Shown: positions 6,917 through 20,846 of the stretch, one piece after another
How the letters are laid out: each line of letters starts with the position of its first letter
Numbering within the stretch: the stretch's first letter is position 1
Source: an uncultured Pseudothermotoga sp.
Lineage (GTDB): Bacteria; Thermotogota; Thermotogae; Thermotogales; DSM-5069
DNA length: 64,000 bases
NCBI GenBank assembly: GCA_937995655.1
Contig: CALKJI010000001.1
Location: 95,613 to 159,612, forward strand
Reading direction: 5' to 3'
Program-made: the position numbers and the translations under genes
The notes under the pieces: generated by a model
The model's input: only the letters and a program-made list of their open reading frames with translations
Databases searched by the model: none
What the model was told of the DNA's origin: nothing

Positions 6917-7088
6917 TATATCACCTTAGTAATAGTATACTTCTTAATATCAACTCAACACAACCTGATTTCAGTTGAAACTCTTCGAAAGATAGCGTAA
7001 ATCGGTAAGTGATTCTAGAAATCTTAACTCTTTTGCCCTTTTCTTCAATTTTCTTATATTTTTAAGTAAAATCAATGTGACTTCATTC

Positions 7089-7117
7089 TTGACAAATAAT
7101 CTTTGGTGTCTTTTAAT
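7089..7117 (+). promoter_or_regulatory. Strong sigma-70-type promoter of the sulfoquinovose cluster
   Basis: TTGACA at 7089-7094 (perfect -35) and TTTAAT at 7112-7117 (-10) are separated by exactly 17 bases. The LacI-type operator starts 3 bases further on, so transcription would begin inside the operator. This is the only clear promoter upstream of the 7154-18051 gene run. Confidence 0.8.
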
Positions 7118-7120
7118 TGA

Positions 7121-7138
7121 TGTGGTAACGTTACCACA
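7121..7138. promoter_or_regulatory. LacI-family operator
   Basis: TGTGGTAACGTTACCACA is a perfect 18-bp palindrome with the central CG typical of LacI/GalR operators. It covers the expected transcription start, so a bound repressor would block initiation. The regulator is probably the LacI-family protein at 17059, the last gene of the same cluster. Inducer is likely a pathway sugar, by inference. Confidence 0.85.
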
Positions 7139-7153
7139 CAAGGGGGTGTTTTT

Positions 7154-8425
7154 ATGAAGAGGTTTTTCCTGGCTTTAATCCTTCTCATTGCTCTATGCAT
7201 CTTTGCCGCTCCTTACAACACAAAGATAAAGGTGCTACTGTGGGACGATGCGCTCACTCAGGCTTTGAAAGCTGGATTGCCAGATTTTGAAAAGGCTACA
7301 GGCATCAAAGTCGATTTAGAATTGGTACCAAGTGGCACTCTGCTTCAAAAAACCTTAATAAGTGTCACAGCCAAGAGTTCAGATTACGATCTGATAGCAG
7401 TCGATGAACCAAATATACCCATGGTAGGCCCGTTGCTCACTGGATTCTCTGATTGGCCACAGACACAGGTTTACACCAGACCCAGTATGGCTGATATTAT
7501 GCCTCTTGCCTTTGCCGCGGGCCAGTGGAAGGGAGAATTTAAGGGTCTCCCCGTGAACGCAAACATCTACGTATGGCTTACGAGAAAGGATATAGTGGAG
7601 AAGTACAAAGAGGAATTCAAAAAAGAATATGGTTATGAAATGAGGGTTCCCAGAACTTTACAGGAATTGCTCGATATGAGCAAATTCCTCTCAAAGAAGG
7701 GTATCTATGGTTGGGCTCCATTCACCAAACCTACCGAAGGTGCTACGGCAGAAGCCGTATGGATCTTCGAAAGCTTTGGTACAAAGATCCTAGAACCCGA
7801 CGCCAATGGTTACAAAGTCGTGTTAGACAAGAAGAAGGCCATTGAGGCTATCAACTTTTATAAAGAACTTCTAAAATATGCACCCCAAGGCGCTCTTGAC
7901 TTTGGACATGCAGAGCGTGTTGCAGCCTTTTCCCGTGGAGAAGTCTTCTCAATGTTCAACTGGCCAGCATTGATACCTGACCTTGAAAATCCTGAAAAAT
8001 CTCTTGTCTATGGCAAAATCGAGTACACAGAGCCACCTTCTGGCCCAGCGAAAACCGCTGCTGTTCGAGGCGCCTGGATCGTCGCCATACCGGTGGCATC
8101 TAAAGAAAAACAGGCAGCTGCCGAGTTCGCCTATTGGTGGATGAGCGTTGAAACGGGGAAAAAGCTGATACCCAAAGGTTTGACACCAGCCAGAGAGTCT
8201 TTGTTAAAAGATCCAGAGTTCCTCAAAGACAGGCCTTGGTTCCTTGGTATTTACAAATCCATGCAGTATGCCGTTGAAAGACCAAGGTTTGAAAAGTATC
8301 CGGAGGTCTCAGCCGTAATCAGAACACACTGGTTGGATGCAATCTCAGGAAGGATTGCCCCAGAAACTGCCGTTGACAGGATGGTGAACGAGATAAATGA
8401 CCTCCTCAGGAAGTATGGTTACTAA
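7154..8425 (+). CDS. ABC sugar transporter, extracellular solute-binding protein (probable sulfoquinovose/sulfoquinovosyl ligand)
   Basis: A 423-aa family-1 binding protein with a clear signal peptide (residues 1-18, ending CIFAAPYNT). Typical features of maltose/sugar-binding type proteins are present: TKIKVLLWDDALTQALKAG, a hinge-region GLPVNANIYVWLTRKD, and a C-terminal helical region with YPEVSAVI. ATG start with AGGGGGTG upstream. It is the first gene after the promoter and operator, so probably the most strongly expressed. A hairpin follows its stop codon. The ligand is inferred from downstream genes (sulfoquinovosidase, sulfo-lyase), not read from the binding site. Confidence 0.88.
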   Translation: MKRFFLALILLIALCIFAAPYNTKIKVLLWDDALTQALKAGLPDFEKATGIKVDLELVPSGTLLQKTLISVTAKSSDYDLIAVDEPNIPMVGPLLTGFSDWPQTQVYTRPSMADIMPLAFAAGQWKGEFKGLPVNANIYVWLTRKDIVEKYKEEFKKEYGYEMRVPRTLQELLDMSKFLSKKGIYGWAPFTKPTEGATAEAVWIFESFGTKILEPDANGYKVVLDKKKAIEAINFYKELLKYAPQGALDFGHAERVAAFSRGEVFSMFNWPALIPDLENPEKSLVYGKIEYTEPPSGPAKTAAVRGAWIVAIPVASKEKQAAAEFAYWWMSVETGKKLIPKGLTPARESLLKDPEFLKDRPWFLGIYKSMQYAVERPRFEKYPEVSAVIRTHWLDAISGRIAPETAVDRMVNEINDLLRKYGY

Positions 8426-9293
8426 GAAAAGGGGCGTACGCCCCTTTCTTGGTTTCATCTTTCCCGGTATAACACTCTTGACCATGATATTGATCTTTCC
8501 CGTGAGTTTTGCCCTAGTCCTTTCTTTCACAGACAGGCAGTTGATCTATCTTGGCTCGACCAATTTTGTTGGTTTATCCAATTACATTGAGATGGTTAGA
8601 GATAAAGGCTTTTGGAGTTCACTTCTACTACAGTTTGGTTTCATAACGATCGCTATACCAATAGAACTCGTAATAGGCTTTTTTGTTGCCTTGCTTTTCA
8701 ACAATGAATTTCCATTGTGCAAACTTCTGAGATCTCTGTTGATGTTACCCGTTTTCATCTTGCCGGTACTGTCAGGTCTAACCTGGCGGTTGATGCTGCA
8801 ACCACGTTATGGTATCTTGGCAAGTTTTTTTAGCTCTATTTCTCTGGGACCTTCTGCCTGGTTAGCCGACAGGAAATACGCTTACTTGGCTATCTTATTA
8901 CAGGATATATGGAGAATGTGGCCCTTCATCTTTATGATCATTTATGCGGGGCTTTCTTCTATGTCTAAAGAGTACTTAGAAGCGGCACAAATAGATGGAG
9001 CAAGATTTTGGCAAAAGTTATACTATGTGATAATTCCATGTTTGAAACCAGTTATAGCCATGGCATTTCTGCTGAGGTTGATAGACGCACTTAGAATCTT
9101 TTCCGAGGTCTATGTGATGACCTACGGTGGACCATCCAATGCCACAATGCTTTTATCTTTGTACATACACAAACAAGCCTTTGAATTTGGAAAGATATCT
9201 TACGCATCTTCTATAGCGATCTTTCTTTTGATTATTTCTCTTGGTCTCTCTTACTTTGTTGTAAAAAAAGGCTTGAGGAGTGACATTGTGTGA
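8415..9293 (+). CDS. ABC sugar transporter permease (MalF-type)
   Basis: A 292-aa inner-membrane permease with about six transmembrane helices and the cytoplasmic EAA loop EYLEAAQIDGARFWQKLYYVIIPCLKP that contacts the ATPase. The N-terminus overlaps the end of the binding-protein gene. Two starts are possible, ATG 8397 and ATG 8415; 8415 has AGGA close upstream and is used here, with moderate certainty. The first codons lie in a 20-bp palindrome, so translation may depend on opening of that hairpin. It pairs with the permease at 9290. No ATPase gene is present in the cluster. Confidence 0.9.
   Translation: MVTKKRGVRPFLGFIFPGITLLTMILIFPVSFALVLSFTDRQLIYLGSTNFVGLSNYIEMVRDKGFWSSLLLQFGFITIAIPIELVIGFFVALLFNNEFPLCKLLRSLLMLPVFILPVLSGLTWRLMLQPRYGILASFFSSISLGPSAWLADRKYAYLAILLQDIWRMWPFIFMIIYAGLSSMSKEYLEAAQIDGARFWQKLYYVIIPCLKPVIAMAFLLRLIDALRIFSEVYVMTYGGPSNATMLLSLYIHKQAFEFGKISYASSIAIFLLIISLGLSYFVVKKGLRSDIV
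8428..8447 (+). promoter_or_regulatory. Perfect 20-bp palindrome after the binding-protein stop codon
   Basis: AAAGGGGCGTACGCCCCTTT begins 3 bases after the TAA of the solute-binding gene and lies within codons 5-11 of the permease gene, followed by CTT. As RNA it forms a GC-rich hairpin with a short U-rich tail, so it may act as a partial terminator that lowers expression of the membrane and enzyme genes relative to the binding protein. Confidence 0.7.
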
Positions 9294-10108
9294 GAAAGAA
9301 AGTCTTTCATTGGATAATCTTTGTAGTTGCCCTATTCATAGTTATGGTTCAACTCTTTCCAATCATGATTGTTGTATTCAACAGCTTCAAAAGAGATATC
9401 GACATATGGAGCAAGAACCCTTTTTATTTCAAACCAACGTTGCGAAGCTATGAACTCATATTTCAAAGCAAAGACTTCATCAATTCGTTAAAGAATTCCT
9501 TCTTTGTGGCACTTCTCTCAACGATTGTTTCCGTATTTTTTGGCTCCATGATGGCCTTTGGGCTTGTTAGATTCCAATTCAGGATCAACAACCTTGTTAT
9601 CATGATTATTCTAATGCTCAGAATGATTCCGCAGATAACTATGGTGCTACCTTTCTACATACTTTTCAGGGTTTTTTCTTTGAACGATACTATCTACGGT
9701 CTATCCTTGGCACACGTGAGTTTTAACCTGCCGTATATTGTGGCATTGCTATTACCGTTCTTTTCCTCCATACCGAAAGATTACGAAGAAGCAGCAAAGA
9801 TTGATGGTTGTAAAAGTTTTGGCATCTATTGGAGAATCTTTTTACCACTCGCATCAGCTGGCATTGTAGTGGCTGCCGTTTTGGGATTTCTGATGTCCTG
9901 GAATGAGTTCATGTACGCTTTAATTCTAACCAGTTCAAGAGCAAAAACAGCACCGATAACGGTGAACGCCTTTCTGGGTCAGTATGCACCGCTTTGGGGT
10001 CAGCTTTCTGCAGCGGGAACGGTGATGTTAATACCAGTTTTTGCGATCACCTTGAGTTTACAAAAGTACATTATAAAGGGTTTATCTGCCGGTGGATTAA
10101 AAGGTTGA
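9290..10108 (+). CDS. ABC sugar transporter permease (MalG-type)
   Basis: A 272-aa permease with six membrane helices and the EAA loop DYEEAAKIDGCKSFGIYWRIFLPLA. The GTG start overlaps the stop of the previous gene by 4 bases (GTGA) and has AGGAG upstream. This is the second half of the heterodimeric channel. The ATPase must come from elsewhere on the chromosome, as is common for family-1 sugar transporters that share one MsmX/MalK-like ATPase. Confidence 0.92.
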   Translation: MRKKVFHWIIFVVALFIVMVQLFPIMIVVFNSFKRDIDIWSKNPFYFKPTLRSYELIFQSKDFINSLKNSFFVALLSTIVSVFFGSMMAFGLVRFQFRINNLVIMIILMLRMIPQITMVLPFYILFRVFSLNDTIYGLSLAHVSFNLPYIVALLLPFFSSIPKDYEEAAKIDGCKSFGIYWRIFLPLASAGIVVAAVLGFLMSWNEFMYALILTSSRAKTAPITVNAFLGQYAPLWGQLSAAGTVMLIPVFAITLSLQKYIIKGLSAGGLKG

Positions 10109-10123
10109 GAAGGAGTGATAAAA

Positions 10124-10783
10124 GTGCTGTTTTTCCTTGATAGTGCAAAGCTTGATGAGATCGAATACGCCATCACAAGATGGAAGATCGATGGTGTTAC
10201 AACCAACCCACGACACTTAATGAACGCTGGAATGAAAGTGGAAGAATTTGCACAAAAGATAATAAAGATGATACCTTCCTTGGATTTCACAGTGAGTTTA
10301 GAGGTAAATCCCCATCTAAAGGAATCTGAAGAAATATTCCAAGAGGCCGTGAAACTCTCTAAGCTTGGAGAAAACTTTGTCATAAAGGTCCCAGCAACGG
10401 AAGCTGGGTTTGAGGCACTTGTGAAACTCAAAAAGGAAGGTGTCAAAGTCAACGTGACTTTGGTATTCAATCTTGTACAAGCACTCCAAGCTGCCAAATT
10501 GGGAGCTTTTTATATCAGCCCGTTTGTTGGCTGGAAGGAAGAAAGAGGTGATATCGATCCAAACTTCATACCAACAGTTGTGAAGGCAATAAAGAACTAC
10601 CATTACGATTCCAAAATCTTAGTGGCTGCTACGAGATCTGTCAGACATATCGCAGATGCCGCCCTTTGCGGAGCCGATATAGTTACTTGCTCCTTCGATC
10701 TTTACAAGAAAGCCTTTGAAAATCCTTACACCGAGATGGGGTTAAAGATCTTTTCAGATTCGTGGGACTCAATCTACAGATGA
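10124..10783 (+). CDS. Small transaldolase family protein, probable 6-deoxy-6-sulfofructose transaldolase
   Basis: A 219-aa member of the short transaldolase/fructose-6-phosphate aldolase family. Visible active-site elements are FLDSAKLDE (Asp6), GVTTNP (residues 24-29) and the Schiff-base lysine Lys88 in FVIKVPAT. In place of the usual serine after TTNP there is Arg30. The GTG at 10124 is chosen because AAGGAG lies 8 bases upstream and the N-terminus then matches the family; a GTG at 10115 overlaps that site. In transaldolase-type sulfoglycolysis this enzyme splits 6-sulfofructose, giving sulfolactaldehyde and moving a three-carbon unit to glyceraldehyde 3-phosphate. Family is secure; substrate is inferred from the cluster. 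A plain fructose-6-phosphate aldolase is the alternative. Confidence 0.85.
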   Translation: MLFFLDSAKLDEIEYAITRWKIDGVTTNPRHLMNAGMKVEEFAQKIIKMIPSLDFTVSLEVNPHLKESEEIFQEAVKLSKLGENFVIKVPATEAGFEALVKLKKEGVKVNVTLVFNLVQALQAAKLGAFYISPFVGWKEERGDIDPNFIPTVVKAIKNYHYDSKILVAATRSVRHIADAALCGADIVTCSFDLYKKAFENPYTEMGLKIFSDSWDSIYR

Positions 10784-10795
10784 GGAGGTATTGGC

Positions 10796-11077
10796 ATGGT
10801 CGATTTCTTAGTCCACAAAAAGGGCGATTATGTTGGTGTGGCTACAACAGATTTAAAGAAGGGTATCATAGCACAAGGCTGGACAGTTGATAAAGATCTT
10901 AACTATGAAATCGAAGTTCTCGAAGATATACCACTTGGACATAAGATAGCTTTAAGAGATATAAAAGGCGGCGAAAAGGTTATCGAGTACGGCGAAACAA
11001 TAGGAGTCGCTACCAAAGACATCAAAATGGGTGAGCACGTTCACATCCATAACATAAAGAGTTTGAAATGGGGGTGA
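10796..11077 (+). CDS. suyA: SuyA-like (2R)-sulfolactate sulfo-lyase, small subunit
   Basis: A 93-aa protein of the UxaA N-terminal/SAF-domain type. The start FLVHKKGDYVGVA, then DIPLGHKIAL and the end GEHVHIHNIKSLKWG match what I recall of SuyA, the small subunit of sulfolactate sulfo-lyase, better than the fused altronate dehydratase. ATG start with GAGGAGG upstream. Four bases separate it from the large-subunit gene. SuyAB removes sulfite from (R)-sulfolactate to leave pyruvate. A split altronate/galactarate dehydratase is the alternative, but no uronate isomerase or reductase genes are nearby. Confidence 0.82.
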   Translation: MVDFLVHKKGDYVGVATTDLKKGIIAQGWTVDKDLNYEIEVLEDIPLGHKIALRDIKGGEKVIEYGETIGVATKDIKMGEHVHIHNIKSLKWG

Positions 11078-11081
11078 GAAT

Positions 11082-12236
11082 ATGCAAAGGCAAGTCATTG
11101 CTTATAGAAGAGAAAACGGAACGGTTGGGGTACGAAATTATGTCCTTTTGATTCCCGTTGATGATATATCCAATGCCGTTGTGGAAGCTGTTGAAAAAAT
11201 TGTCAACGGAACTTTAGCAATACCTCATCCTTATGGCAGGTTACAATTTGGAGAGGACTTGGAACTGTTTTTCAAAACAATGATAGGAACCGGGAAAAAC
11301 CCCAATGTAGCAGCTGCTATTGTTGTTGGAATTGAACCAAATTGGACACACAGGATAGCAGACGAGATATCCAAAACTGGCAAACCAGTTGAAGGTTTCT
11401 GGGTCGAGGGAAATGGTCAAATCAAAACGATAGAGAAGGTAGCAAGAACCGCTGTAAAATTTGTTGAAGATGCGACGAACTTAAAAAGAGAACCCGTTGA
11501 TATAAATGAGTTAACTATCAGTCTTAAATGCGGCGAATCTGACACAACATCTGGTTTAGGATCAAACAAAGTTGTTGGTAGATTTACAGAAAGATTCCTA
11601 CAAATCGGTGGAACAGTTCTTTTTGGTGAGACAACGGAGTTAACAGGTGCAGAACACATAGTAGCCTCAAAGTTCAAAGATAAAAACGAAAAGGAAAAGT
11701 TCCTGAAAATCTTCCAAGAGTACCAAGATTTGGTTAAATCAAAAGGTGTAGATCTGCTTGGCTCACAACCGACCCAGGGCAATATTGCCGGAGGACTCAG
11801 TACTATCGAAGAAAAGGCATTGGGAAATATACAAAAAATCGGAGATGCCATGATTGATGGAGCACTCGATTTTGCTGAGCCGGCTCCAGGTAAAGGACTT
11901 TACTTTATGAACACCTCGTCGGCAGCAGCCGAAGCAGTCACATTGTTCGCTTCAGCCGGTGCTGTTATTCATCTATTCCCAACCGGTCAAGGAAACCCCA
12001 TAGGAAATCCCATCGTTCCCGTTGTGAAAATAACGGCGAATCCCAAAACCGTTCAGTCCATGAAGGAACACATAGATGTAGATGTCTCTGCCTTGCTCAG
12101 AGGTGATATAAACCTTGATCAAGCCGCAGAGACACTTTGGAATAGGGTCGTCGAGACAGCCAATGGACGACTTGTAAAAGCAGAGATACTCAGACACAAT
12201 GAATTCGTTTTGACAAAACTTTACAGAAGTGCATGA
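11082..12236 (+). CDS. suyB: SuyB-like (2R)-sulfolactate sulfo-lyase, large subunit
   Basis: A 384-aa UxaA C-terminal-domain protein. It carries GYRREN-like AYRRENGTVGVRNYV, AIPHPYGRLQFGEDL, KCGESDTTSGLGSN, FGETTELTGAEH, GNIAGGLSTIEEKALGNI, FPTGQGNPIGNPIVPV and HIDVDVS, ending LTKLYRSA; length and end match SuyB as I recall it. Its cysteine-containing KCGESD motif is the probable metal-binding region. Together with SuyA it would cleave the carbon-sulfur bond of sulfolactate, releasing sulfite and pyruvate in the cytoplasm. Start ATG, GGGGTGAG upstream. Sequence relation to altronate dehydratase is real, so substrate rests on motif memory plus context. Confidence 0.85.
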   Translation: MQRQVIAYRRENGTVGVRNYVLLIPVDDISNAVVEAVEKIVNGTLAIPHPYGRLQFGEDLELFFKTMIGTGKNPNVAAAIVVGIEPNWTHRIADEISKTGKPVEGFWVEGNGQIKTIEKVARTAVKFVEDATNLKREPVDINELTISLKCGESDTTSGLGSNKVVGRFTERFLQIGGTVLFGETTELTGAEHIVASKFKDKNEKEKFLKIFQEYQDLVKSKGVDLLGSQPTQGNIAGGLSTIEEKALGNIQKIGDAMIDGALDFAEPAPGKGLYFMNTSSAAAEAVTLFASAGAVIHLFPTGQGNPIGNPIVPVVKITANPKTVQSMKEHIDVDVSALLRGDINLDQAAETLWNRVVETANGRLVKAEILRHNEFVLTKLYRSA

Positions 12237-12247
12237 GGTGATAAAGG

Positions 12248-13663
12248 ATGAAGATGATCATAGCCGGCCGTTGGACCGATAGATCCCAGAAAATCGAAGT
12301 TCTCTATCCCTACGATGAAAACGTAGTTGATACCGTACCACAGGCAACCGAAGAAGACATAGAAACCGCATTGAAGGAATCAGTCAATGGTGCACGACTG
12401 ATGAAACAAATGCCTGCTTGGAAAAGATCTGAAATACTTGAAAAAACATCAAAAATTCTTTTGAAAAGGAAAGATGAGATGACGAACATATTGGTAAAAG
12501 AGGTAGGCAAAACCATCAGAGAAGCCCGAGCCGAGGTTGAAAGAACCGTGGAGATATTCAAGTACGCTGCAGAGGAATCAAAGAGAATTTACGGTGAAAC
12601 CTTACCTTTTGATTCATCCATTACCTCCGAAACAAAGATTGGTTATTTCCTTCGCGAACCATCGGGCGTAGTCGTTGCAATTGTCCCGTTCAATGTACCC
12701 TTAGCCCTTTGTGCACACAAAGTTGCACCTGCAATTGCTGCAGGAAATTCCGTTATAGTTAAACCGGCATCCAAAACGCCGTTGAATGCCATTATCCTGG
12801 GAGAGATCTTACTGGAAGCTGGGATGCCTCCAGAAGCCTTGAGTGTTGTAACCGGCTCGGGAAGCAAGATTGGTTTGATGCTCGTACAAGACAAAAGAGT
12901 TAGAATAGTCAGTTTCACTGGGAGTGTCAGCACAGGTGAGGTCATAGCCAAGGCTGCAGGAATCAAGAAACTGTGTTTTGAACTTGGCTCAAACTCTCCA
13001 ATGATTGTCTCTAAGACTGCCGATCTTTCAAAAGCTGTAAAGGCTGCTGTAAGCGGTGGCTTTTCAATCGCCGGACAGGTCTGTATATCAGTCCAGAGAG
13101 TCTATGTTCACAAAGAGATATATCAAGATTTTCTTGACAGATTGTACAACGAAGTAAGCAAAATGAGATTTGGAGATCCTTCTTCCGAAGAAACTCATAT
13201 GGGCCCAGTTGTAGATAGATCCAATGCAGACAGAATAATCCAGTGGATAGATGAAGCAGTCACCAAGGGTGGAAAACTTTTAATAGGCGGTGGTAGAAAC
13301 AAAAACCTGATAGAACCAACTGTTCTCACTCAAGTGCCCAAGAGCACTAAGATTATGACAGATGAACTTTTTGGGCCTGCCATTGCGGTTAATCCCTTTG
13401 AAACCTTTGATGAAGCTATAGAAGAAGCTAATTCTACAAGGTATGGACTTCAAGTGGGTGTATTCACAAAAGATCTTCAAGAAGCTCTCAAAGCTATAAA
13501 GGAATTGGAGTTTGGAGGTGTCATGATAAACGAAGGTCCAAGATTTAGAGCAGACTTTATGCCTTATGGTGGCTACAAGGACAGCGGAATCGGTAGAGAA
13601 GGAATAAGATTCACAATAGAAGAGATGACAGAAATAAAAACTGTTTCCTTTGATCTTCTGTGA
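12248..13663 (+). CDS. NAD(P)-dependent aldehyde dehydrogenase, probable sulfolactaldehyde dehydrogenase
   Basis: A 471-aa aldehyde dehydrogenase. Catalytic residues are visible: Asn149 in PFNVPL, Glu245 in FELGSNSP and the nucleophile Cys279 in IAGQVC; the cofactor region shows FTGSVSTG. It resembles the lactaldehyde/glyceraldehyde-type ALDH subgroup. Lying between suyB and the sulfoquinovosidase gene, it would oxidise sulfolactaldehyde from the transaldolase reaction to sulfolactate, the SuyAB substrate, giving NAD(P)H. ATG start after GAGGTGATAA. Specificity is inferred from context; non-phosphorylating glyceraldehyde-3-phosphate or lactaldehyde dehydrogenase are alternatives. Confidence 0.85.
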   Translation: MKMIIAGRWTDRSQKIEVLYPYDENVVDTVPQATEEDIETALKESVNGARLMKQMPAWKRSEILEKTSKILLKRKDEMTNILVKEVGKTIREARAEVERTVEIFKYAAEESKRIYGETLPFDSSITSETKIGYFLREPSGVVVAIVPFNVPLALCAHKVAPAIAAGNSVIVKPASKTPLNAIILGEILLEAGMPPEALSVVTGSGSKIGLMLVQDKRVRIVSFTGSVSTGEVIAKAAGIKKLCFELGSNSPMIVSKTADLSKAVKAAVSGGFSIAGQVCISVQRVYVHKEIYQDFLDRLYNEVSKMRFGDPSSEETHMGPVVDRSNADRIIQWIDEAVTKGGKLLIGGGRNKNLIEPTVLTQVPKSTKIMTDELFGPAIAVNPFETFDEAIEEANSTRYGLQVGVFTKDLQEALKAIKELEFGGVMINEGPRFRADFMPYGGYKDSGIGREGIRFTIEEMTEIKTVSFDLL

Positions 13664-13681
13664 AATTAGGGATGTGAGACT

Positions 13682-15652
13682 ATGCAAATGGAAATAACTT
13701 CAAGTGGTTTTAAATTGAGATACAAAGATCTTATGATAATTCACCAGAAAGATAATCCACTGGTTTTCTGTGGCAGTGGAAAATCGAATTTTCAGATGAG
13801 TCATGGAAACTTTCAGATCACAGATGATCTTTTTTCCAAGATACCTTTAAGGCAATTTTCTATTCAAGGGGGAAACATAATCTTCGAGAACCTCATAACT
13901 TTGAACTTCGAAGAATCAGACGATCTTCTTCAGATTCACTTTGAACCTCTGGACAAAACTCTGAACAGGTTATGGGTAACTCTACCGTTACAACCAAATG
14001 AGCACATATACGGTTGTGGCGAGCAATACTCGCATTTTGATCTCAGAGGGAAGAGGGTTCCTATCTGGGTGAGTGAACAGGGTGTTGGTCGAAACAAGAA
14101 AGACTTAATAACAATTTTTGCCGACTTTTTCTCCAATGCCGGTGGTGATTGGTACACAACCTATTTTCCACAGCCAACCTTTGTTTCTTCTAGAATGTAT
14201 TTCTGTCATGTTGAAACATCTTCATACACTGTCTTTGATTTCACCAAAGACCATCTTCAGATAGAAATCTGGCAGTTACCAGTGACTGTGAAGATCTACT
14301 GTGCTGAAAGCTGGCAGGATCTTTTTGCCAAAATGACTACAATCCTTGGAAGACAACCTAAGATTCCAGAATGGATCCTAGATGGAGCCATATTGGGAAT
14401 ACAGGGTGGCACTCAAATAATGCTTGAGAAAACAGAGAAAATGAGAAACAAAGGATTGAAGATAGCCGGTGTCTGGATCCAAGATTGGGAAGGTAAGAGA
14501 ATAACCACCTTTGGAAGGCAATTGATGTGGAACTGGCAGTATTCTGAAGAGCTTTATCCAAATTTGCCAAAGACAATTGAAGTACTACAGAAAGAGGATA
14601 TACGAGTCTTAGGTTATATAAATCCCTTTCTCGCACTGGAGGGAAATCTATACACAGAAGCAAGCGCTAAAGGTTTTCTTGTAAAAAACAAGAATGGTGA
14701 TGAATACCACGTTGTTGTGACAACCTTCCCGGCAGCAATTGTCGATTTGACAAACCCATTGGCTTGCGAATGGTTGAAGAATGTGATAAAGAAGAATATG
14801 ATAGGCATAGGTCTTTCAGGTTGGATGGCAGACTATGGCGAATACCTACCCACCGATGCTGTTCTTTACAGTGGCGAATCTGCCGAATTGGTTCACAATA
14901 AATTCCCTGTTCTTTGGGCAAAGGTGAATTATGAAGCAGTTAAAGAATCTCAAAAAGACGATGTTGTCTACTTCATGCGTTCTGGCTATACAGGTAGTGC
15001 AAGATACACACCTTTATACTGGAATGGTGATCAATTGGTGAACTGGTCCAAAGATGATGGCTTGGCGAGTATAATACCAGCAACCTTGTCTCTCGGTATG
15101 AGTGGTGTCGCTTTTACTCATTCAGACATTGGTGGTTACACCACTTTGGCAAAAAATGTTCCAGATATGATAAAGACAGTGAGATCAAAGGAAGTGTTCC
15201 TAAGATGGACAGAAATTGCTGCTTTCATGCCTGTTATGAGAACACATGAAGGAAATTGGCCAGATGAAAACTGGCAATTCGATTCAGACGAAGAGACAAT
15301 CGAACATTTTGTAAAGATGACTGAACTTCACAGAAGACTTAAAAATTATTTCTTAAAGTGTGTACATGAATATTACGAGACGGGTTTACCAATTATAAGA
15401 CCTCTCTTTCTTCATTATGATGAACCGTTTTGTTATACCGAACAATACGAATTCTTGGTTGGTAGAGATATACTCCTTTGCCCCGTCTTAGAAAAAGACG
15501 TGACACAGATGACTGTCCATCTGCCCGACGATCTGTGGGTTCATTACTGGACAGGAAAGGAATATTATGGTGGAGAATACAGAATTCCTGTTCCCCTAGG
15601 GGAACCTGCATTTTTCATAAGGAAGGAAGGCGAAAAACCTTGGAAAGATTAA
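13682..15652 (+). CDS. yihQ: GH31 sulfoquinovosidase (YihQ-like)
   Basis: A 656-aa GH31 enzyme that can be aligned by eye along its length with E. coli YihQ, as I recall its sequence. The nucleophile is Asp384 in WMADYGEYLPTD and the acid/base Asp450 in WNGDQ. Sulfonate-pocket positions: Gln241 (IQGGT), Gln267 (WIQDW), Trp283 (LMWNW) and Tyr486 (SDIGGYTTL) match YihQ Gln262, Gln288, Trp304 and Tyr508, but the position of Arg301 is Gln280, with Arg279 next to it. No signal peptide, so it acts in the cytoplasm on imported sulfoquinovosyl glycerol or similar. An ordinary alpha-glucosidase is much less likely given these motifs. Confidence 0.88.
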   Translation: MQMEITSSGFKLRYKDLMIIHQKDNPLVFCGSGKSNFQMSHGNFQITDDLFSKIPLRQFSIQGGNIIFENLITLNFEESDDLLQIHFEPLDKTLNRLWVTLPLQPNEHIYGCGEQYSHFDLRGKRVPIWVSEQGVGRNKKDLITIFADFFSNAGGDWYTTYFPQPTFVSSRMYFCHVETSSYTVFDFTKDHLQIEIWQLPVTVKIYCAESWQDLFAKMTTILGRQPKIPEWILDGAILGIQGGTQIMLEKTEKMRNKGLKIAGVWIQDWEGKRITTFGRQLMWNWQYSEELYPNLPKTIEVLQKEDIRVLGYINPFLALEGNLYTEASAKGFLVKNKNGDEYHVVVTTFPAAIVDLTNPLACEWLKNVIKKNMIGIGLSGWMADYGEYLPTDAVLYSGESAELVHNKFPVLWAKVNYEAVKESQKDDVVYFMRSGYTGSARYTPLYWNGDQLVNWSKDDGLASIIPATLSLGMSGVAFTHSDIGGYTTLAKNVPDMIKTVRSKEVFLRWTEIAAFMPVMRTHEGNWPDENWQFDSDEETIEHFVKMTELHRRLKNYFLKCVHEYYETGLPIIRPLFLHYDEPFCYTEQYEFLVGRDILLCPVLEKDVTQMTVHLPDDLWVHYWTGKEYYGGEYRIPVPLGEPAFFIRKEGEKPWKD

Positions 15653-17055
15653 AGGTAGGACTTTTGGGCTTGATGCAACCAAATTTCAGAGGAAATAAAC
15701 AACAGGTCTTCGATAGATGCCTCAAAGGTTTATCTGAACTTTCAAAAGAACTGGATTTTGATCTATACCATGTGAGGAATCTGGTCTCTGATGTTGAACA
15801 TACCAGGAGTTCTTTGAAAGAACTTGAATCCCACGGTATAGATTTACTTTTGATCTTGAATGCCTCCTTTGCTTCCGGTTATCTTGTACAGGCTCTCTTT
15901 GATTTCAACGGTTTTCTTGGTTTTTGGGCAGTCCCCGAAGAGGGAGAAAAAGGTCCTTTACCACTAAATTCGCTATGTGGTATGAATTTGAACATTGGTT
16001 TGCTCAGAAAGAAAAGGCCACACAGGAAGTTCAAATGGTTTTATGGGTATCCAGATCAAGAGATCTTCAAAAAACGCCTCTTTCTTACTGTAAAAACCTT
16101 AGGTACTATCAAGAGATTGAAAGGCAAAAGGATATTACAAGTAGAGGGTTGGGCTCCTGGGTTTGATAATCTGTCCTACGAGTCAAGCGATTTGTACAAT
16201 CACTTTGGTGTAATTGTAGAAAGAATTAGCTTTGAAGAGTTCAAAAAGATGATTCTGTCTCAGAGATCTTTTGATAAAACCATCGATCAGATGAAAAAAC
16301 ACTTCATCGCTATAGATGATCTTTCCAAACAGAGCCTGCCAAAGGCAGCAGCATTGGTAGACGTGGTTAAAGAGCTCCATGAAAAAGGTTATGAGGCTTT
16401 TGCAGTAAGTTGTTGGCCATACTTTAGATCACATCTTTCAATGGTACCTTGCGCATCCTTTGGCTTTTTGAACGATCTTGGTATAACGGTTGCTTGTGAA
16501 GGAGATATCTATGGTGCTTTAAGTATGCTCATTTTGAGATATTTGGCCGAATGTCCATCTCTAATATTTGATATATCACACATAGATGTTGATGAAGATC
16601 TTTTACTATTTTGGCATTGCGGGCTTGGTAGTAAATGTTACTCCGATAAACTTTGGATGGAAAGACATTTCAACCCAGGACCCTTCGATCCTCAAAAGGG
16701 ATGGCTTACTATGGCACCAGTTGCCAGTATGGTTATAGATAAAATGCCGGCAACTGTGATGAGAATTTGTGGTGACGGCGATAAAATAATCTTTTTCAAA
16801 GGTGAATTTTTCGGTGATTCTAAACCATCATTCGATGGCAGTCGTGGCTGGTTTGGTAAGATGAGCTTCGCTGGAAAAAAGCTGGGTGTGATGGATCTTA
16901 TTAACACAATCATGACATATGGGCTTGAACATCATTTTTGTGTTGTAAAAGAAGACTGGGAAGAAGAACTATTTGAATTTGCTTACTGGTCCGATTTAAA
17001 GATCCTGGAACCACTTTCATATGAGAATTATCCATCAAAGATTGAAGGGGTGTGA
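15640..17055 (+). CDS. L-fucose/L-arabinose isomerase-superfamily protein, probable sulfoquinovose isomerase
   Basis: A 471-aa protein with the fold signatures of the L-fucose isomerase superfamily: Glu287 in ACEGDIYGA, Asp311 in IFDISHID and Trp-His-Cys at 325-327 (WHCG), the expected metal and sugar ligands. The start is TTG at 15640, overlapping the sulfoquinovosidase stop by 13 bases, with AAGGAAGG about 9 bases upstream; the long open frame further upstream is read in another frame of the GH31 gene. In the pathway it would convert sulfoquinovose to 6-deoxy-6-sulfofructose, the step between the glycosidase and the transaldolase. Substrate is inferred from context. Confidence 0.8.
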   Translation: MERLKVGLLGLMQPNFRGNKQQVFDRCLKGLSELSKELDFDLYHVRNLVSDVEHTRSSLKELESHGIDLLLILNASFASGYLVQALFDFNGFLGFWAVPEEGEKGPLPLNSLCGMNLNIGLLRKKRPHRKFKWFYGYPDQEIFKKRLFLTVKTLGTIKRLKGKRILQVEGWAPGFDNLSYESSDLYNHFGVIVERISFEEFKKMILSQRSFDKTIDQMKKHFIAIDDLSKQSLPKAAALVDVVKELHEKGYEAFAVSCWPYFRSHLSMVPCASFGFLNDLGITVACEGDIYGALSMLILRYLAECPSLIFDISHIDVDEDLLLFWHCGLGSKCYSDKLWMERHFNPGPFDPQKGWLTMAPVASMVIDKMPATVMRICGDGDKIIFFKGEFFGDSKPSFDGSRGWFGKMSFAGKKLGVMDLINTIMTYGLEHHFCVVKEDWEEELFEFAYWSDLKILEPLSYENYPSKIEGV

Positions 17056-17058
17056 ATT

Positions 17059-18051
17059 TTGAAGACGAACCAAGTCACCATAAAAGATATTGCCAAACTC
17101 AGTGGTTACTCTATAAATACTGTTTCAAGGGCTTTGAACGGTAACGGATACGTCAGTAAACAGGCAAAACAAAAGATCCTGGAGGTCGCAAAAAATATCG
17201 GTTATTACAAAGACAGAACGGCTCTCTCTTTGAGGCAAAAGAAGACCAAGATCATCGGTGTAATAATAGTAGATAACTCAAACCCATTTTATGCAGACGT
17301 ACTGAGTGGTGTAGAAGATGCTGCTTATGAAAAAGGTTTTGAAACGATATTGGTGAACAGCTACAGAGATCCCGAACGTGAAAAAAAAGCAGTAATCAAG
17401 ATGATTGAAAGAAGGGTTGATGGTTTAATAATCACTTCTACCCAACAGAACTGGGAGTTATTACTGAGTGCCAAGCAAAAGACAAATGTTGTAGTAGTCG
17501 GATCACACTATCGGGGTTTGAAATCTGTAAGACCTGACGATCAAAAGATCGGTTATATCGCCACGAAATACTTAGTCCAGATGGGACACAGAAATATCGT
17601 CATGTTCAATTCTTTACCTGAGAAATTTACTTCCCAGTTCCGTCAAAAGGGTTATCAATTGGCGATGGAAGAGGCAGGACTGCGAAGTCATATAATAAAT
17701 TCTGCGGAAGGTTTCGAAAACTCCTACGAAAGATTCAAAGAGTTTTTTCAAGAAAAGAACTCACGAAAGTTCACGGCCGTTCTTTGTTATAACGACATTT
17801 TTGCCTATGCAGTAATAAAAATTGCCAAGGACTTAAAGATAGATGTACCAAACCAACTCAGCGTCATGGGAATAGATGATCTGGTTTTCTCTGCCATAAT
17901 TGATCCCCCACTCACCACTGTTCACATAGATAGACGAGAACTGGGTAAATTGGCCTTTCTGTCGGTCATTGGTGAAAACAACGCCGAAGAAACTGTGATA
18001 GATGTACATCTTGTAGAGAGGTCGAGTGTTGCTCGAAAGACCTCTGTCTAA
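17059..18051 (+). CDS. LacI-family transcriptional regulator of the sulfoquinovose cluster
   Basis: A 330-aa LacI/GalR regulator: N-terminal HTH with hinge (residues 1-60; VTIKDIAKLSGYSINTVSRALNG) and a periplasmic-binding-like sugar domain (SNPFYADVLSGVEDAAYE onward). TTG start, GGGGTG upstream, three bases after the isomerase stop. The consensus operator of this family is found at 7121 in front of the cluster, so it probably represses the whole cluster and responds to an intermediate such as sulfoquinovose. Its 3' end overlaps the convergent thiP gene by 4 bases. Confidence 0.9.
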   Translation: MKTNQVTIKDIAKLSGYSINTVSRALNGNGYVSKQAKQKILEVAKNIGYYKDRTALSLRQKKTKIIGVIIVDNSNPFYADVLSGVEDAAYEKGFETILVNSYRDPEREKKAVIKMIERRVDGLIITSTQQNWELLLSAKQKTNVVVVGSHYRGLKSVRPDDQKIGYIATKYLVQMGHRNIVMFNSLPEKFTSQFRQKGYQLAMEEAGLRSHIINSAEGFENSYERFKEFFQEKNSRKFTAVLCYNDIFAYAVIKIAKDLKIDVPNQLSVMGIDDLVFSAIIDPPLTTVHIDRRELGKLAFLSVIGENNAEETVIDVHLVERSSVARKTSV

Positions 18052-19598
18052 CTCCATTGTCCTGTCTGTTCTGAAAGGAAAAACAGTGCCAAAACAACCA
18101 ACATCAAAATTGAATTCAGTGCCTGAGCTTCACCAACATGCCGCGTACTAAAGAGCTTGTAAGTCGCAACAGATAGCGTGGTCATTTGACCGTTCGAAAG
18201 GATTATCGTTGCTGTAATCTCACCAAGTGCTATAGCCGTAGAAAAGGCAAAGGTACCGAGCAATTCTCTTTTGAAAATAGGCAGTGTTATCCTGAAAAGC
18301 CTCTTTGTAAAATTACAACCATCAATTTTGCTGGCCTCTTCTATCTCCCTTGGAAAACTCCTCCAGACATTTTGAAGAGAGTTGTGAACCAAAGGCAAAG
18401 AGATCAACATGTAAACAGTACTCAGCTTCAATATCTGAGGTATATTGTCAAAAAGAATCATACCAAATGCCATCGTTGCAGGCGAAACAGCTATCGGCAA
18501 ATATGTCAGCGTCGACAAAGAATTTTTCAACCTCACTGAAGCGTAAGAACTCACTAATCCAAGAGCACATACACACATCCCTACCAGAGAACCCAAAACA
18601 ATGCTGTAGACTATCACAGACAATACATTTGCTCCAATTATCCACTCAACACCCTGATTGAACAATCTTTTGAAATTTTCAAGCGTAAAAGTGCCTCCAT
18701 ACCTAAAGAATCCTCCCAGTGAAGCCATACTCAATGGAAGGAAGACAAATAAGCCCATAACTGCTATGTAAAAGTATGCCCATTTTGGCCTCCTTTCTTT
18801 GAGTGTTTCACCAAAAAATTGCTCAGACTTGTTGGATAAGATCAAGAAAATAAAACTTGCTATAGCTACAAAAATCATTTGAAAGAGTGTCAAAGATAAT
18901 GCGCTTTCAAAGTCTAAAAGGATTCTCAAATACATGTAGATACTCACTTCGATAGTTGAATATCTAATGCCTCCCAAGATCAGAACGACAGCAAAACTCG
19001 TGAAACAATAAAGATAGGAAAGCGCAAAAGCCGAACCAACAGCCGGTGTTACCAAAGGAAATTCTATGTACCAAAATCTTTTAAACCTTGAGATACCTTC
19101 AAGGTTAGCCATTTCAAGAATGTTCCTATCTATTCTTTCAAAAGCATCTCCCACAATTCTTATGAAAAGTGGAAAATTATAGAAGACATGACCTATCAAG
19201 ACGGCAGCAAATGTATAAAGTATTCTAAACCTCAGTCCAAACAACGATAGGAAGGAGTTTATCAAACCGTTATTTCCGAAGGTCAGCAAAAATCCTATGG
19301 CCATTGATATCCCCGGGAGCACAAAGGGTACCATGCTTGCTGCCTTTAAAAGGCTTTTTAAACTGTTTGGTAGTTTTGCCCTTGCCAGCAGATAAGCCCC
19401 TGGTATCCCCAAGAGCATAGTCAAAACAGCTGAAATAAAGGCCTGAAAAATAGTGAAGCGTATGATCGACGAATTTCTGGACACAGTTTGAAAAAAATTC
19501 ATCTCTGGAAACCTTGAAAATAACAGAATCAAAGGGAAAATCAAAAAGGTGCCGATAAAGATTACCGGCACCAGAATTAGGATCCTTTGCCTTTTCAT
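18048..19598 (-). CDS. thiP: Thiamine ABC transporter permease (ThiP-type, fused double permease)
   Basis: A 516-aa membrane protein with two copies of a six-helix permease domain, each with an EAA-type loop (EMANLEGISRFKRFWYIEFPLV and EEASKIDGCNFTKRLFRITLP). This fused arrangement is typical of ThiP and iron(III) permeases. ATG start overlaps the thiB stop (ATGA). It shares the TPP riboswitch with thiB, which points to thiamine or its phosphates rather than iron. No ThiQ ATPase gene is present next to it. Confidence 0.88.
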   Translation of the reverse strand: MKRQRILILVPVIFIGTFLIFPLILLFSRFPEMNFFQTVSRNSSIIRFTIFQAFISAVLTMLLGIPGAYLLARAKLPNSLKSLLKAASMVPFVLPGISMAIGFLLTFGNNGLINSFLSLFGLRFRILYTFAAVLIGHVFYNFPLFIRIVGDAFERIDRNILEMANLEGISRFKRFWYIEFPLVTPAVGSAFALSYLYCFTSFAVVLILGGIRYSTIEVSIYMYLRILLDFESALSLTLFQMIFVAIASFIFLILSNKSEQFFGETLKERRPKWAYFYIAVMGLFVFLPLSMASLGGFFRYGGTFTLENFKRLFNQGVEWIIGANVLSVIVYSIVLGSLVGMCVCALGLVSSYASVRLKNSLSTLTYLPIAVSPATMAFGMILFDNIPQILKLSTVYMLISLPLVHNSLQNVWRSFPREIEEASKIDGCNFTKRLFRITLPIFKRELLGTFAFSTAIALGEITATIILSNGQMTTLSVATYKLFSTRHVGEAQALNSILMLVVLALFFLSEQTGQWS

Positions 19599-20581
19599 CT
19601 AGCAATCATTACCTGTACCCATTTTTCAAGCCATTCTTTGCCTTTTTGATCAAAGATGGTGTAATCAAAAGACAATACTTTGTCTATCTGCGATGCGTAT
19701 TTGTAAGCTTCTGGAAGTTTTGTTTCTATGACCGGATACATCCACTGATTCAAAGGCACTTGAGATTGAAATTCCTCACTCAGAACAAACTCGACGAATT
19801 TCTTTGCGAGTTCAATATTCTTGCTCCCATTCACTATGGCAACATATTCTATTTGGACAAATGCTCCTTCTTCCATCACTACCGGCAGATATTTAAGACT
19901 CCCATATTCATGGTAGCTGTAAGCACCATCGGTTGCGTAACTGACCATGATATCTGCCTCTCCCGTCTCGAGCATACTGAATGATTCATCCCAACCCGGT
20001 GTTATAGTTAAAATGTTGCTTTTCAAATTTTTCCAGTACTCCGCAAACCCGTCCTCACCGAAGACTGCCACCGTCCAGAGCATGAAAGAAAGTCCCGTGC
20101 TGGAGGTACGAGGATCTTGAACGACCAGTTTCTTTCTGAATCTTTCATCAAGTAGCTCTTTAAAAGATCTTGGAGGATTTTTGATCTTCTCCGTATTGTA
20201 GACTAATGCAATTGCACCATAATCAAAGGGTGTACCGTAACCTTGCTCATCGAGTAATTTTTCTTCTTTGACCTTAGAGATGTTCTGTGGAGTGAATGGT
20301 ACCAAAAGTCCTTCAGAGATCGCTCGTCTCAAAAGTGGTTGATCCAGCCCAATTACAACGTCAGCCTTTGGTTGTCCCTTTTCAATTATCAACCTGGCAA
20401 GTACATTACCAGCGTCTCCAAAGGATTGTACTCTGACTTTAACACCATTCTGCCTTTCAAAAATAGGTATGACCTTTTGTGCGATGCCTGCGGCAAAACT
20501 ACTGTAAGTGTAAACAACTAATTCTTGAGCGAGTATTGACATTGTCAGAATTAGTGATAAGATAAATAACAACTTTCTCAT
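19595..20581 (-). CDS. thiB: Thiamine-binding periplasmic protein (ThiB/TbpA)
   Basis: A 328-aa binding protein with signal peptide (about residues 1-18, LLFILSLILTMSILAQ) and TbpA-type motifs: ELVVYTYSSFAAGIAQKV, a VVIGLDQPLLRRA segment, PFDYGAIALVYNTEKI and the C-terminal VNGSKNIELAKKFVEFVLS. The ATG at 20581 is chosen because GGGGAGG lies 8 bases upstream; the open frame extends slightly further through two GTG codons. It is the first gene behind the TPP riboswitch, which supports thiamine as ligand. Confidence 0.9.
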   Translation of the reverse strand: MRKLLFILSLILTMSILAQELVVYTYSSFAAGIAQKVIPIFERQNGVKVRVQSFGDAGNVLARLIIEKGQPKADVVIGLDQPLLRRAISEGLLVPFTPQNISKVKEEKLLDEQGYGTPFDYGAIALVYNTEKIKNPPRSFKELLDERFRKKLVVQDPRTSSTGLSFMLWTVAVFGEDGFAEYWKNLKSNILTITPGWDESFSMLETGEADIMVSYATDGAYSYHEYGSLKYLPVVMEEGAFVQIEYVAIVNGSKNIELAKKFVEFVLSEEFQSQVPLNQWMYPVIETKLPEAYKYASQIDKVLSFDYTIFDQKGKEWLEKWVQVMIAR

Positions 20582-20600
20582 ATACACCACCTCCCCTAAG

Positions 20601-20625
20601 TTAAAACCCCGCCACCGGCGGGGTA
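20601..20625 (-). terminator. Intrinsic terminator controlled by the TPP riboswitch
   Basis: On the minus strand ACCCCGCC and GGCGGGGT pair around GGT, followed by TTTAA. It sits between the riboswitch and the thiB ribosome-binding site, so it is the expected expression platform: ligand binding would favour this terminator. Confidence 0.85.
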
Positions 20626-20641
20626 ATTGATTTTCAATTTG

Positions 20642-20726
20642 CTCCCTACGCCGGCATTACCCGGATCAGGTTCAAGGGTCGAGGACTTCCGTCCTCCTCT
20701 CAGCCTCGGATTAGAAGCTCCCCTGC
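20642..20726 (-). ncRNA. TPP riboswitch (THI element)
   Basis: Read on the minus strand this contains the invariant pieces of the TPP riboswitch: GGGGAGC at the 5' arm, CTGAGAGG, then ACCCTTGAACCTGATC, GGGTAATGCCGGCG and the closing TAGGGAGC. It binds thiamine diphosphate and would shut off thiB-thiP when the vitamin is plentiful, through the terminator just downstream. Confidence 0.95.
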
Positions 20727-20846
20727 ACAGATATTCACTTACGTTTTTATTGTATCATAAGTAAAAGACTTGGATCAATATCAAAAATGGCTAACTGTGA
20801 AAAGATGCTGTAAAATTGTTTTGTGCCACGAGAGGAGTGAAAGACT

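What the first reader, a model, noticed from the sequence alone, without database searches (positions are those of the whole stretch)
7089..18051. A complete transaldolase-type sulfoquinovose degradation cluster in a thermophilic Thermotogota-like genome
Seen: a promoter and LacI operator followed, on one strand and mostly with overlapping or near-touching genes, by binding protein, two permeases, small transaldolase, SuyA- and SuyB-like subunits, aldehyde dehydrogenase, YihQ-like GH31, fucose-isomerase-like protein and LacI regulator. Established: YihQ releases sulfoquinovose; in sulfoglycolysis by transaldolase it is isomerised to 6-sulfofructose and split to sulfolactaldehyde; SuyAB cleaves sulfolactate to pyruvate and sulfite. 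Inference: every step from import to carbon-sulfur cleavage is present. Plant and algal sulfolipid would thus be a carbon source at high temperature. I know of no described thermophilic Thermotogota sulfoglycolysis.
Basis: partly seen in the sequence, partly recalled or inferred. Interest (0 to 1): 0.95.

Follow-up and report, generated by a model that had tools for sequence, protein, structure and literature searches.

The report
Thermophile operon for plant sulfosugar breakdown
A Pseudothermotoga-like bacterium carries ten same-strand genes that are predicted to import sulfoquinovose, a sulfur sugar of plant membranes, and break it down to pyruvate and sulfite; seven related genomes carry, beside the matching predicted sulfur-releasing enzyme gene, a LarA-family gene that likely encodes the mirror-image (racemase) step which this pathway should need and which this genome's block lacks.

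Summary
In detail: ten genes at 7154-18051, one strand, behind a perfect 18-bp LacI-type palindrome. The enzymes fit the reading: the GH31 matches sulfoquinovosidase YihQ (714 bits; first GH31 outside that group 156), the transaldolase matches sulfofructose transaldolase best, the isomerase has the arabinose/fucose-isomerase fold, and SuyB relatives are named sulfolactate sulfo-lyase.

It is not undescribed: a 2022 review already reports sulfo-TAL clusters with SuyAB in Thermotogae and Chloroflexi. And not every step is present. The block has no transport ATPase. SuyAB is reported to be (R)-specific while this route should give (S)-sulfolactate, and the inverting partner ComC is absent from all 15 genomes tested, this one included.

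What seems new lies in relatives. In 7 of 14 Thermotogota genomes with SuyB, a LarA-family racemase gene lies directly beside SuyB. It carries the signature of LarAH5 'malate racemase' Mar1, whose native substrate its discoverers doubted. I propose a nickel-pincer sulfolactate racemase replacing SlcC/ComC. Against: five of the eight genomes with it (one a fragment) lack recognisable cofactor-synthesis genes, and the window's own family lacks the gene, so its own (S)-to-(R) step is unexplained.

The parts
7089..7117 (+). promoter-like TTGACA-17-TTTAAT
   Evidence: read from sequence; not listed by the consensus scan, so a reading only
7121..7138 (.). perfect 18-bp palindrome, predicted LacI-family operator just downstream of the -10 hexamer
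   Evidence: identical at the start of the binding-protein gene in the 3 relatives with the same ten-gene order, and not found with up to 5 mismatches in the stretches scanned of 3 relatives of the other SuyAB arrangement (L022, L024, L030)
7154..8425 (+). ABC sugar-type solute-binding protein (predicted sulfoquinovose/sulfoquinovosyl-glycerol binder)
   Evidence: SBP_bac_8 86.5 bits; best PDB MalE3 104 bits, SmoF only 57 bits
8397..9293 (+). ABC permease 1
   Evidence: BPD_transp_1
9290..10108 (+). ABC permease 2
   Evidence: BPD_transp_1
10115..10783 (+). small transaldolase, predicted 6-sulfofructose transaldolase (SftT/SqvA type)
   Evidence: best PDB BmSF-TAL 228 bits, next kind T. maritima transaldolase 142; Lys91 aligns with Lys89
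10796..11077 (+). SuyA-like small subunit
   Evidence: SAF domain; a SuyA-like gene directly before SuyB in the relatives read
11082..12236 (+). SuyB-like large subunit, predicted (R)-sulfolactate sulfolyase
   Evidence: GD_AH_C 287 bits; relatives at 62-85% named (2R)-sulfolactate sulfo-lyase subunit beta by one source; 59% to the SuyB of a SuyAB-SlcC-ComC-type cluster
12248..13663 (+). aldehyde dehydrogenase, predicted sulfolactaldehyde dehydrogenase
   Evidence: Aldedh 536 bits; best NCBIfam model lactaldehyde dehydrogenase 527.5 bits, below its cut-off 650
13682..15652 (+). GH31 sulfoquinovosidase (YihQ type)
   Evidence: 883 bits against NF007746, cut-off 553; YihQ 714 bits; catalytic D384 and D450 kept, R301 replaced by Q280
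15640..17055 (+). predicted sulfoquinovose isomerase (divergent SftI/SqvD type; TTG start assumed)
17059..18051 (+). LacI-family regulator
   Evidence: LacI and Peripla_BP domains

Best explanation
The ten genes at 7154-18051 lie on one strand behind a perfect palindrome and are predicted to form one operon that imports sulfoquinovose or its glycosides, releases and isomerises the sugar, splits it by transaldolase transfer, oxidises the sulfolactaldehyde and likely cleaves the sulfolactate to pyruvate and sulfite. Predicted order: LacI lets go of the operator; the binding protein and two permeases, powered by an ATPase encoded elsewhere, bring in sulfoquinovosyl glycosides; GH31 releases sulfoquinovose; the fucose-isomerase-like enzyme makes 6-sulfofructose; the transaldolase moves the three-carbon unit to glyceraldehyde-3-phosphate, giving fructose-6-phosphate and (S)-sulfolactaldehyde; the dehydrogenase makes (S)-sulfolactate; SuyAB cleaves sulfolactate. 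Sulfite would have to be exported, since no siroheme sulfite reductase was found. SuyAB is reported to be (R)-specific, so one inversion step is missing from this block. In sister operons the gene next to SuyB is a LarA-family racemase, which I take to supply that step. In this genome the step is either done in trans by the LarAH6-type protein on contig C3, or this SuyAB accepts the (S) form.
Against: Isomerase far below its curated cut-off (145.7 of 700). Arg301 of the YihQ sulfonate pocket is Gln here and in 19 of 20 Thermotogota GH31s compared (Tyr508 is Phe in 2 of 20, not here), but Arg in the four closest kinds of solved GH31. Binding protein only weakly like SmoF. The dehydrogenase passes no curated cut-off among the 25 models shown. 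No ATPase gene in the block and none sought elsewhere. No ComC and no in-block racemase. Own-genus genomes G001-G003 have no full-length isomerase of this type and no SuyB of 70% or more.
Confidence: 0.85

Rival explanations
1. In this genome the (S)-to-(R) step is done in trans by the LarAH6-type racemase on contig C3 (L087 9611-10882), acting on sulfolactate as an analogue of malate.
For: The gene scores 564 bits against the LarAH6 malate racemase model, cut-off 500; its NPN-binding and catalytic residues are intact; no ComC competes.
Against: It sits in its own group of genes with a malic enzyme and a distant SuyAB-like pair, and orthologues occur in G001 and G003, which lack the sulfosugar cluster. 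LarB, LarC and LarE are not found over cut-off in this genome.
Confidence: 0.3
2. SuyAB of the Pseudothermotoga-type operons accepts (S)-sulfolactate directly, so no racemase is needed.
For: All 7 own-family genomes with SuyB of 70% or more lack a LarA beside SuyB (in G010 the dehydrogenase follows SuyB directly), yet SuyB is well kept. Desulfovibrio DF1 SuyAB was shown to work on sulfolactate made as a racemate, and the main text there holds no mention of SlcC or ComC.
Against: No position separates SuyB of the 7 operons without LarA from the 7 with LarA by fixed residues (0 fixed differences; 6 positions with non-overlapping but variable residues), so a specificity change is not visible.
Confidence: 0.35
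3. The operon degrades another sulfonated sugar or a related acidic alpha-glucoside, not sulfoquinovose.
For: Arg301 to Gln in the sulfonate pocket of GH31; isomerase below its cut-off; binding protein closest to a maltose binder.
Against: GH31 scores 714 bits against YihQ and 156 against the first GH31 outside the YihQ group; W304, Y508, Q262 and Q288 are kept; a SuyAB pair and a sulfofructose-type transaldolase share the operon.
Confidence: 0.08

Closest known systems
Sulfo-TAL (sulfo-SFT) pathway of Bacillus megaterium / B. aryabhattai (SftG-SftI-SftT-SlaB)
   Same: sulfoquinovosidase, isomerase, small transaldolase and aldehyde dehydrogenase in one cluster
   Different: ABC importer instead of the Bacillus transport set (recalled), divergent isomerase, and SuyAB added
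Extended sulfo-TAL clusters with SuyAB in Thermotogae and Chloroflexi (PMC9594981, section 11 read; it cites its reference 21, not read)
   Same: the same gene set; this block is a member of that reported kind
   Different: the section read does not mention a racemase, its absence, a LarA gene, or the isomerase and GH31 subtypes
SlcC-ComC-SuyAB sulfolactate pathway (Chromohalobacter, Paracoccus, Taurinivorans; passages)
   Same: SuyAB lyase with an inverting step; racemisation genes often lie near SuyAB
   Different: no ComC in any of 15 Thermotogota genomes; a LarA-family gene beside SuyB in 7 of 14
LarAH5/Mar1 nickel-pincer malate racemase of Desulfitobacterium hafniense (PMC7583248)
   Same: the in-operon LarA of G023 scores over the LarAH5 cut-off; all 7 long copies carry Gln at position 175 and His-Lys at 358-359
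   Different: genomic place between SuyB and the aldehyde dehydrogenase; Mar1 itself was tested on malate (KM 55 mM in the paper's Table 2), and a 2024 paper still treats it as a malate racemase with side activity on tartrate

Membership tests
GH31 sulfoquinovosidase (YihQ) | overall similarity above other GH31 | tested here: met
   714 bits to YihQ, 156 to the first GH31 outside the YihQ group; NF007746 883 over cut-off 553
GH31 sulfoquinovosidase (YihQ) | catalytic Asp405 (seen) and Asp472 (recalled) | tested here: met
   D384 and D450
GH31 sulfoquinovosidase (YihQ) | sulfonate pocket Gln262, Gln288, Arg301, Trp304, Tyr508 (list recalled) | tested here: inconclusive
   4 of 5 kept; Arg301 is Gln280
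sulfofructose transaldolase (SftT/SqvA) | Schiff-base Lys89 (named) and closest kin among FSA/transaldolases | tested here: met
   Lys91; BmSF-TAL 228 bits against 142
sulfoquinovose isomerase SftI/SqvD | NCBIfam NF048012 curated cut-off | tested here: not met
   145.7 of 700 bits: works like, not filed as the same subfamily
sulfoquinovose isomerase SftI/SqvD | L-fucose/L-arabinose isomerase fold | tested here: met
SuyAB sulfolactate sulfolyase | SuyB closer to SuyB than to UxaA/GarD | tested here: met
   59-85% to SuyB-type, 36-40% to UxaA-like in Thermotogota
SuyAB sulfolactate sulfolyase | releases sulfite from (R)-sulfolactate | not testable with these tools
   needs an assay
sulfolactaldehyde dehydrogenase (SlaB/GabD) | sulfonate-binding Arg171/Arg289 or His164/Asn280 pair | tested here: inconclusive
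   judged by eye from the printed motifs: His at the first place, Ser at the second; no alignment with SlaB was made
LarAH5 nickel-pincer racemase (in-operon gene of relatives) | NCBIfam NF052595 cut-off 462 | tested here: inconclusive
   L030 483 (met), L082 423 (not met); the other in-operon copies were not scored
LarAH5 nickel-pincer racemase (in-operon gene of relatives) | catalytic and NPN-binding residues and the MAR signature | tested here: met
   D72 R75 H108 H174 K184 H200 Q295 K298, Q175, H358, K359 in 7 of 7 long copies
LarAH5 nickel-pincer racemase (in-operon gene of relatives) | cofactor synthesis LarB, LarC, LarE in the genome | tested here: not met
   recognisable in only 3 of 8 genomes with the gene: G023 and G025 over cut-off for all three, G011 with all three in pieces (LarB pieces below cut-off); not in G049, G084, G085, G098, G099

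The most novel reading that the evidence does not exclude
The LarA-family gene wedged beside SuyB in Thermotogota sulfosugar operons is a one-enzyme, nickel-pincer sulfolactate racemase that turns (S)-sulfolactate from sulfoglycolysis into the (R) form that SuyAB cleaves. It replaces the two-dehydrogenase SlcC/ComC route of Proteobacteria. The 'malate racemase' Mar1 of the sulfolactate-respiring Desulfitobacterium is the same kind of enzyme, with sulfolactate as its real substrate. The window's family has lost the gene and must solve the step another way.
Probability: 0.55. Interest if true: 0.75.

Novelty: new variant of a known kind. Interest (0 to 1): 0.55.

Why it matters
If right, anaerobic thermophiles could take all six carbons of the plant sulfosugar in one cell and release sulfite, instead of passing a C3 sulfonate to partners. 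The stereochemical mismatch between sulfoglycolysis and SuyAB becomes a concrete question with a named candidate gene, a new nickel reaction would be added to the LarA superfamily, and the doubtful native substrate of Mar1 could be tested with one compound.

Tried and rejected
Considered and dropped: plain alpha-glucosidase for GH31; altronate dehydratase for the SuyAB pair; ComC elsewhere in the genome (PF02615: 0 of 1, 0 of 15; the control rang in 4 of 14); sulfite reduction by a siroheme enzyme (PF01077: 0 of 1, control 11 of 14). SlcC-type dehydrogenases were not sought in Thermotogota. A TauE-type exporter is in 14 of 15 genomes including the own one, there on another contig than the cluster, so it proves nothing. 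SuyB residues that would mark a change of enantiomer: none fixed. SmoF-like binding protein: weak. Plasmid records: the in-operon LarA finds 15 records at 27-34% identity, none examined for a SuyB neighbour, so pairing outside Thermotogota is untested.

Rows left out before counts: for the LarA alignment 9 of the 37 LarA-like rows collected (distant ones, the own C4 copy among them), and for the tree also the G049 fragment; 42 of the 120 listed database relatives were used. For alignment A1, 64 of the 120 listed relatives (158 found) were used. The GH31 comparison used 20 genomes, picked from the stretches fetched. In the transketolase-type L017 four proteins were scanned by Pfam (transketolase N-half, Fe-ADH, RpiB-like, EamA; the C-half was not); L025 and L027 matched by BLAST; L018-L021 show only the same gap. 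The 8-kb limit was chosen after seeing the tables.

Papers: PMC9594981 passages and section 11; PMC7583248 passages and section 9; PMC11770544 passages, outline and section 6; PMC12890257, PMC12421959, PMC10599462, PMC11968277, PMC6278857, PMC10755693, PMC9826295, PMC10507020, PMC11131964 and PMC11382572 passages only; all others only as search listings. Denger and Cook 2010 was not read. Statements of absence in print rest.
Full report
What is there. Ten genes run on the + strand from 7154 to 18051 behind a perfect 18-bp palindrome at 7121-7138. Families by profile: ABC binding protein, two permeases, small transaldolase, SAF protein, GD_AH protein, aldehyde dehydrogenase, GH31, fucose-isomerase-like protein, LacI regulator. 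No ATPase gene lies in the block.

Organism. Its SuyB is 93% identical to a protein named Pseudothermotoga sp.. By equal contig lengths, G007 is P. hypogea DSM 11164, G006 P. thermarum, G025 Thermotoga sp. KOL6, G011 Thermotoga sp. and G099 Petrotoga sp. 9PW.55.5.1; this is an inference from lengths. Thermophily is inferred from these names.

Enzyme by enzyme. GH31: 714 bits to E. coli YihQ; the YihQ-like entries 8r56, 6pnr and 5ohy follow (700 to 600 bits), and the next GH31 has 156. Both catalytic Asp residues and four of five recalled sulfonate-pocket residues are kept, but Arg301 is Gln. That Gln is in 19 of 20 Thermotogota GH31s compared, and Tyr508 is Phe in 2 of 20, not here; 8r56, 5aed, 6pnr and 5ohy all have Arg. 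Transaldolase: BmSF-TAL first at 228 bits, T. maritima transaldolase 142; 100 of 197 aligned residues are identical and the Schiff-base lysine is kept. Isomerase: only 145.7 bits to the SftI model with cut-off 700 and no sequence match in the PDB, but a confident model with the L-arabinose/L-fucose isomerase fold. SuyB: relatives at 62-85% are named (2R)-sulfolactate sulfo-lyase subunit beta by one source, others UxaA family hydrolase or D-galactarate dehydratase. It is 59% identical to the Sinorhizobium mexicanum gene whose neighbours are a SuyA-like small protein, a PF03601 membrane protein, a D-2-hydroxyacid dehydrogenase (SlcC type) and an Ldh_2 protein (ComC type). Aldehyde dehydrogenase: family clear, substrate inferred.

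Relatives. In 61 genomes, 10 (own included) carry a full-length isomerase of this type. Three others, G005, G008 and G009, have the identical ten-gene order, and all four share the palindrome without a mismatch; it was not found with up to 5 mismatches in the stretches scanned of L022, L024 and L030, which have the other SuyAB arrangement. In the Fervidobacterium-like L017 homologous importer, GH31, isomerase and LacI genes surround a transketolase N-half, an iron alcohol dehydrogenase, an EamA transporter and an RpiB-like isomerase, matching the sulfo-TK set reported for Thermotogae. A second SuyAB arrangement keeps importer, transaldolase, SuyAB and dehydrogenase but has another isomerase (28% identical; 259.7 bits to the SftI model) followed by GH31. 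GH31-isomerase-regulator thus looks like an exchangeable cassette. Own genus mates G001-G003 lack the full-length isomerase and any SuyB of 70% or more.

Already in print. PMC9594981 says that sulfo-TAL clusters in Thermotogae and Chloroflexi contain SuyAB, suggesting complete use of the sulfoquinovose carbon; PMC12890257 lists Thermotogae for sulfo-TAL and sulfo-TK. The finding as written is therefore a new member of a reported kind. The passages seen give genome evidence only.

The missing step. Sulfoglycolysis gives (S)-sulfolactaldehyde and SuyAB is described as (R)-specific; SlcC and ComC invert in Proteobacteria and in Taurinivorans. The ComC family PF02615 is in 0 of 15 Thermotogota genomes with this cluster or part of it (control 4 of 14). 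Against over-reading this: the Desulfovibrio DF1 work made its sulfolactate as a racemate and its main text holds no SlcC or ComC.

The LarA gene. In G023 and G025 a gene between SuyB and the dehydrogenase carries Lar_N (144-146 bits) and LarA_C. Among 103 Thermotogota genomes, 14 have SuyB at 70% or more; in 7 of these the matched stretches of SuyB and LarA lie 6-20 bp apart on the same strand. In an eighth genome, G049, whose contig starts inside it, a LarA fragment lies just before the dehydrogenase. The 7 without it are the seven own-family genomes; in G010 the dehydrogenase follows SuyB directly. The 7 long copies sit in one 23-row clade with 100/99 support, apart from the own C3 copy. 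Four database relatives in that clade share exact contig lengths with SuyB proteins (P0247/P0157, P0251/P0168, P0254/P0163, P0257/P0162), which suggests the same contigs; P0254 is nearly the G084 protein, so not independent.

Why sulfolactate. The best solved relative is malate racemase Mar2 at 195 bits, and malate is the carboxylate analogue of sulfolactate. G023's protein passes the LarAH5 model (483 of 462); G084's does not (423). All 7 long copies have the catalytic residues, Gln at position 175 and His-Lys at 358-359, the group-5 signature. The founders of that group report a KM of 55 mM for malate with Mar1 in their table (their text gives very high values, over 50 or over 100 mM), doubted malate as native substrate, and named tartrate or 2-hydroxysuccinamate as options. 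A later paper on the superfamily still files Mar1 as malate racemase with side activity on tartrate. D. hafniense is reported to use sulfolactate as electron acceptor and to carry candidate SuyAB genes. No word beginning with 'sulfo' occurs in the main texts of either LarA paper, and 'sulfolactate racemase' occurs in no paper of the library.

Wider pairing. SuyB-family places and LarA places lie within 8 kb of each other, on one strand, in 25 of 34 cases: 7 of 14 SuyB and 18 of 20 more distant UxaA-like ones (nine of the latter are about 5 kb apart). A racemase paired with an eliminating enzyme of this family is thus a recurrent theme in the phylum. This also weakens the point that pairing with SuyB is special to sulfolactate.

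Results against. LarB, LarC and LarE are over cut-off only in G023 and G025; G011 has LarC and LarE matches over cut-off in pieces and LarB pieces below it. They were not found over cut-off in G049, in the four genomes of family f9 (G084, G085, G098, G099), nor in the own genome. LarA is intact in the four f9 genomes (G049 holds a fragment), so either the cofactor comes another way or the reading is wrong for them. The own genome has a LarAH6-type gene on C3 beside a malic enzyme and a distant SuyAB-like pair, but orthologues exist in genomes without the sulfosugar cluster. No fixed SuyB difference tracks presence of LarA.

Verdict. Observation confirmed; pathway assignment likely; completeness and novelty claims not upheld; the racemase candidate in sister operons is the part worth testing.

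Noticed in passing
window 18048-20734, - strand: An ABC-type permease gene (18048-19598) and a binding-protein gene (19595-20590), likely for thiamine (by eye), behind a TPP riboswitch (74.9 bits), converging on the sulfosugar operon with a 4-bp overlap.
   Followed up: no
window 8425-8447: A perfect GC-rich stem (AAAGGGGCGTACGCCCCTTT) just after the binding-protein stop, inside the start of permease 1; stem-like G/C-rich sequence stands at the same place in the 4 relatives printed. Possibly it keeps the binding protein expressed above the permeases.
   Followed up: partly
L087 6836-10882 (own genome, contig C3): Malic enzyme, SuyA-like (45%), SuyB-like (39%) and LarAH6-type racemase in a row; the SuyB-like/LarA pair recurs in 7 other genomes of the family. 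A second, non-sulfo lyase plus racemase set.
   Followed up: partly
L098 (G076, family f11) 5563-16213: Genomes of family f11 hold UxaA-like and LarA-like genes about 5 kb apart; in G076 several other ORFs lie between them; substrate unknown.
   Followed up: no
own-family genomes G000-G010: LarA homologues, most with intact catalytic residues (not G002's copy), but no LarC (0 of 11), and no LarB or LarE over cut-off in the 9 tested: how the nickel-pincer cofactor is obtained is unexplained.
   Followed up: partly
GH31 column of YihQ Arg301: Gln in 19 of 20 Thermotogota sulfoquinovosidase-type GH31s, in transaldolase and transketolase operons alike; always preceded by Arg or Lys.
   Followed up: yes
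L085 (G099, Petrotoga sp.) 6211-6925: The transaldolase gene is split into two ORFs while the other operon genes look full-length; sequencing error or decay not told apart.
   Followed up: no
L022 13911-15107 (P. hypogea-type): A sodium:dicarboxylate symporter gene follows the sulfosugar operon and a GntR gene; it might carry sulfolactate or DHPS.
   Followed up: no
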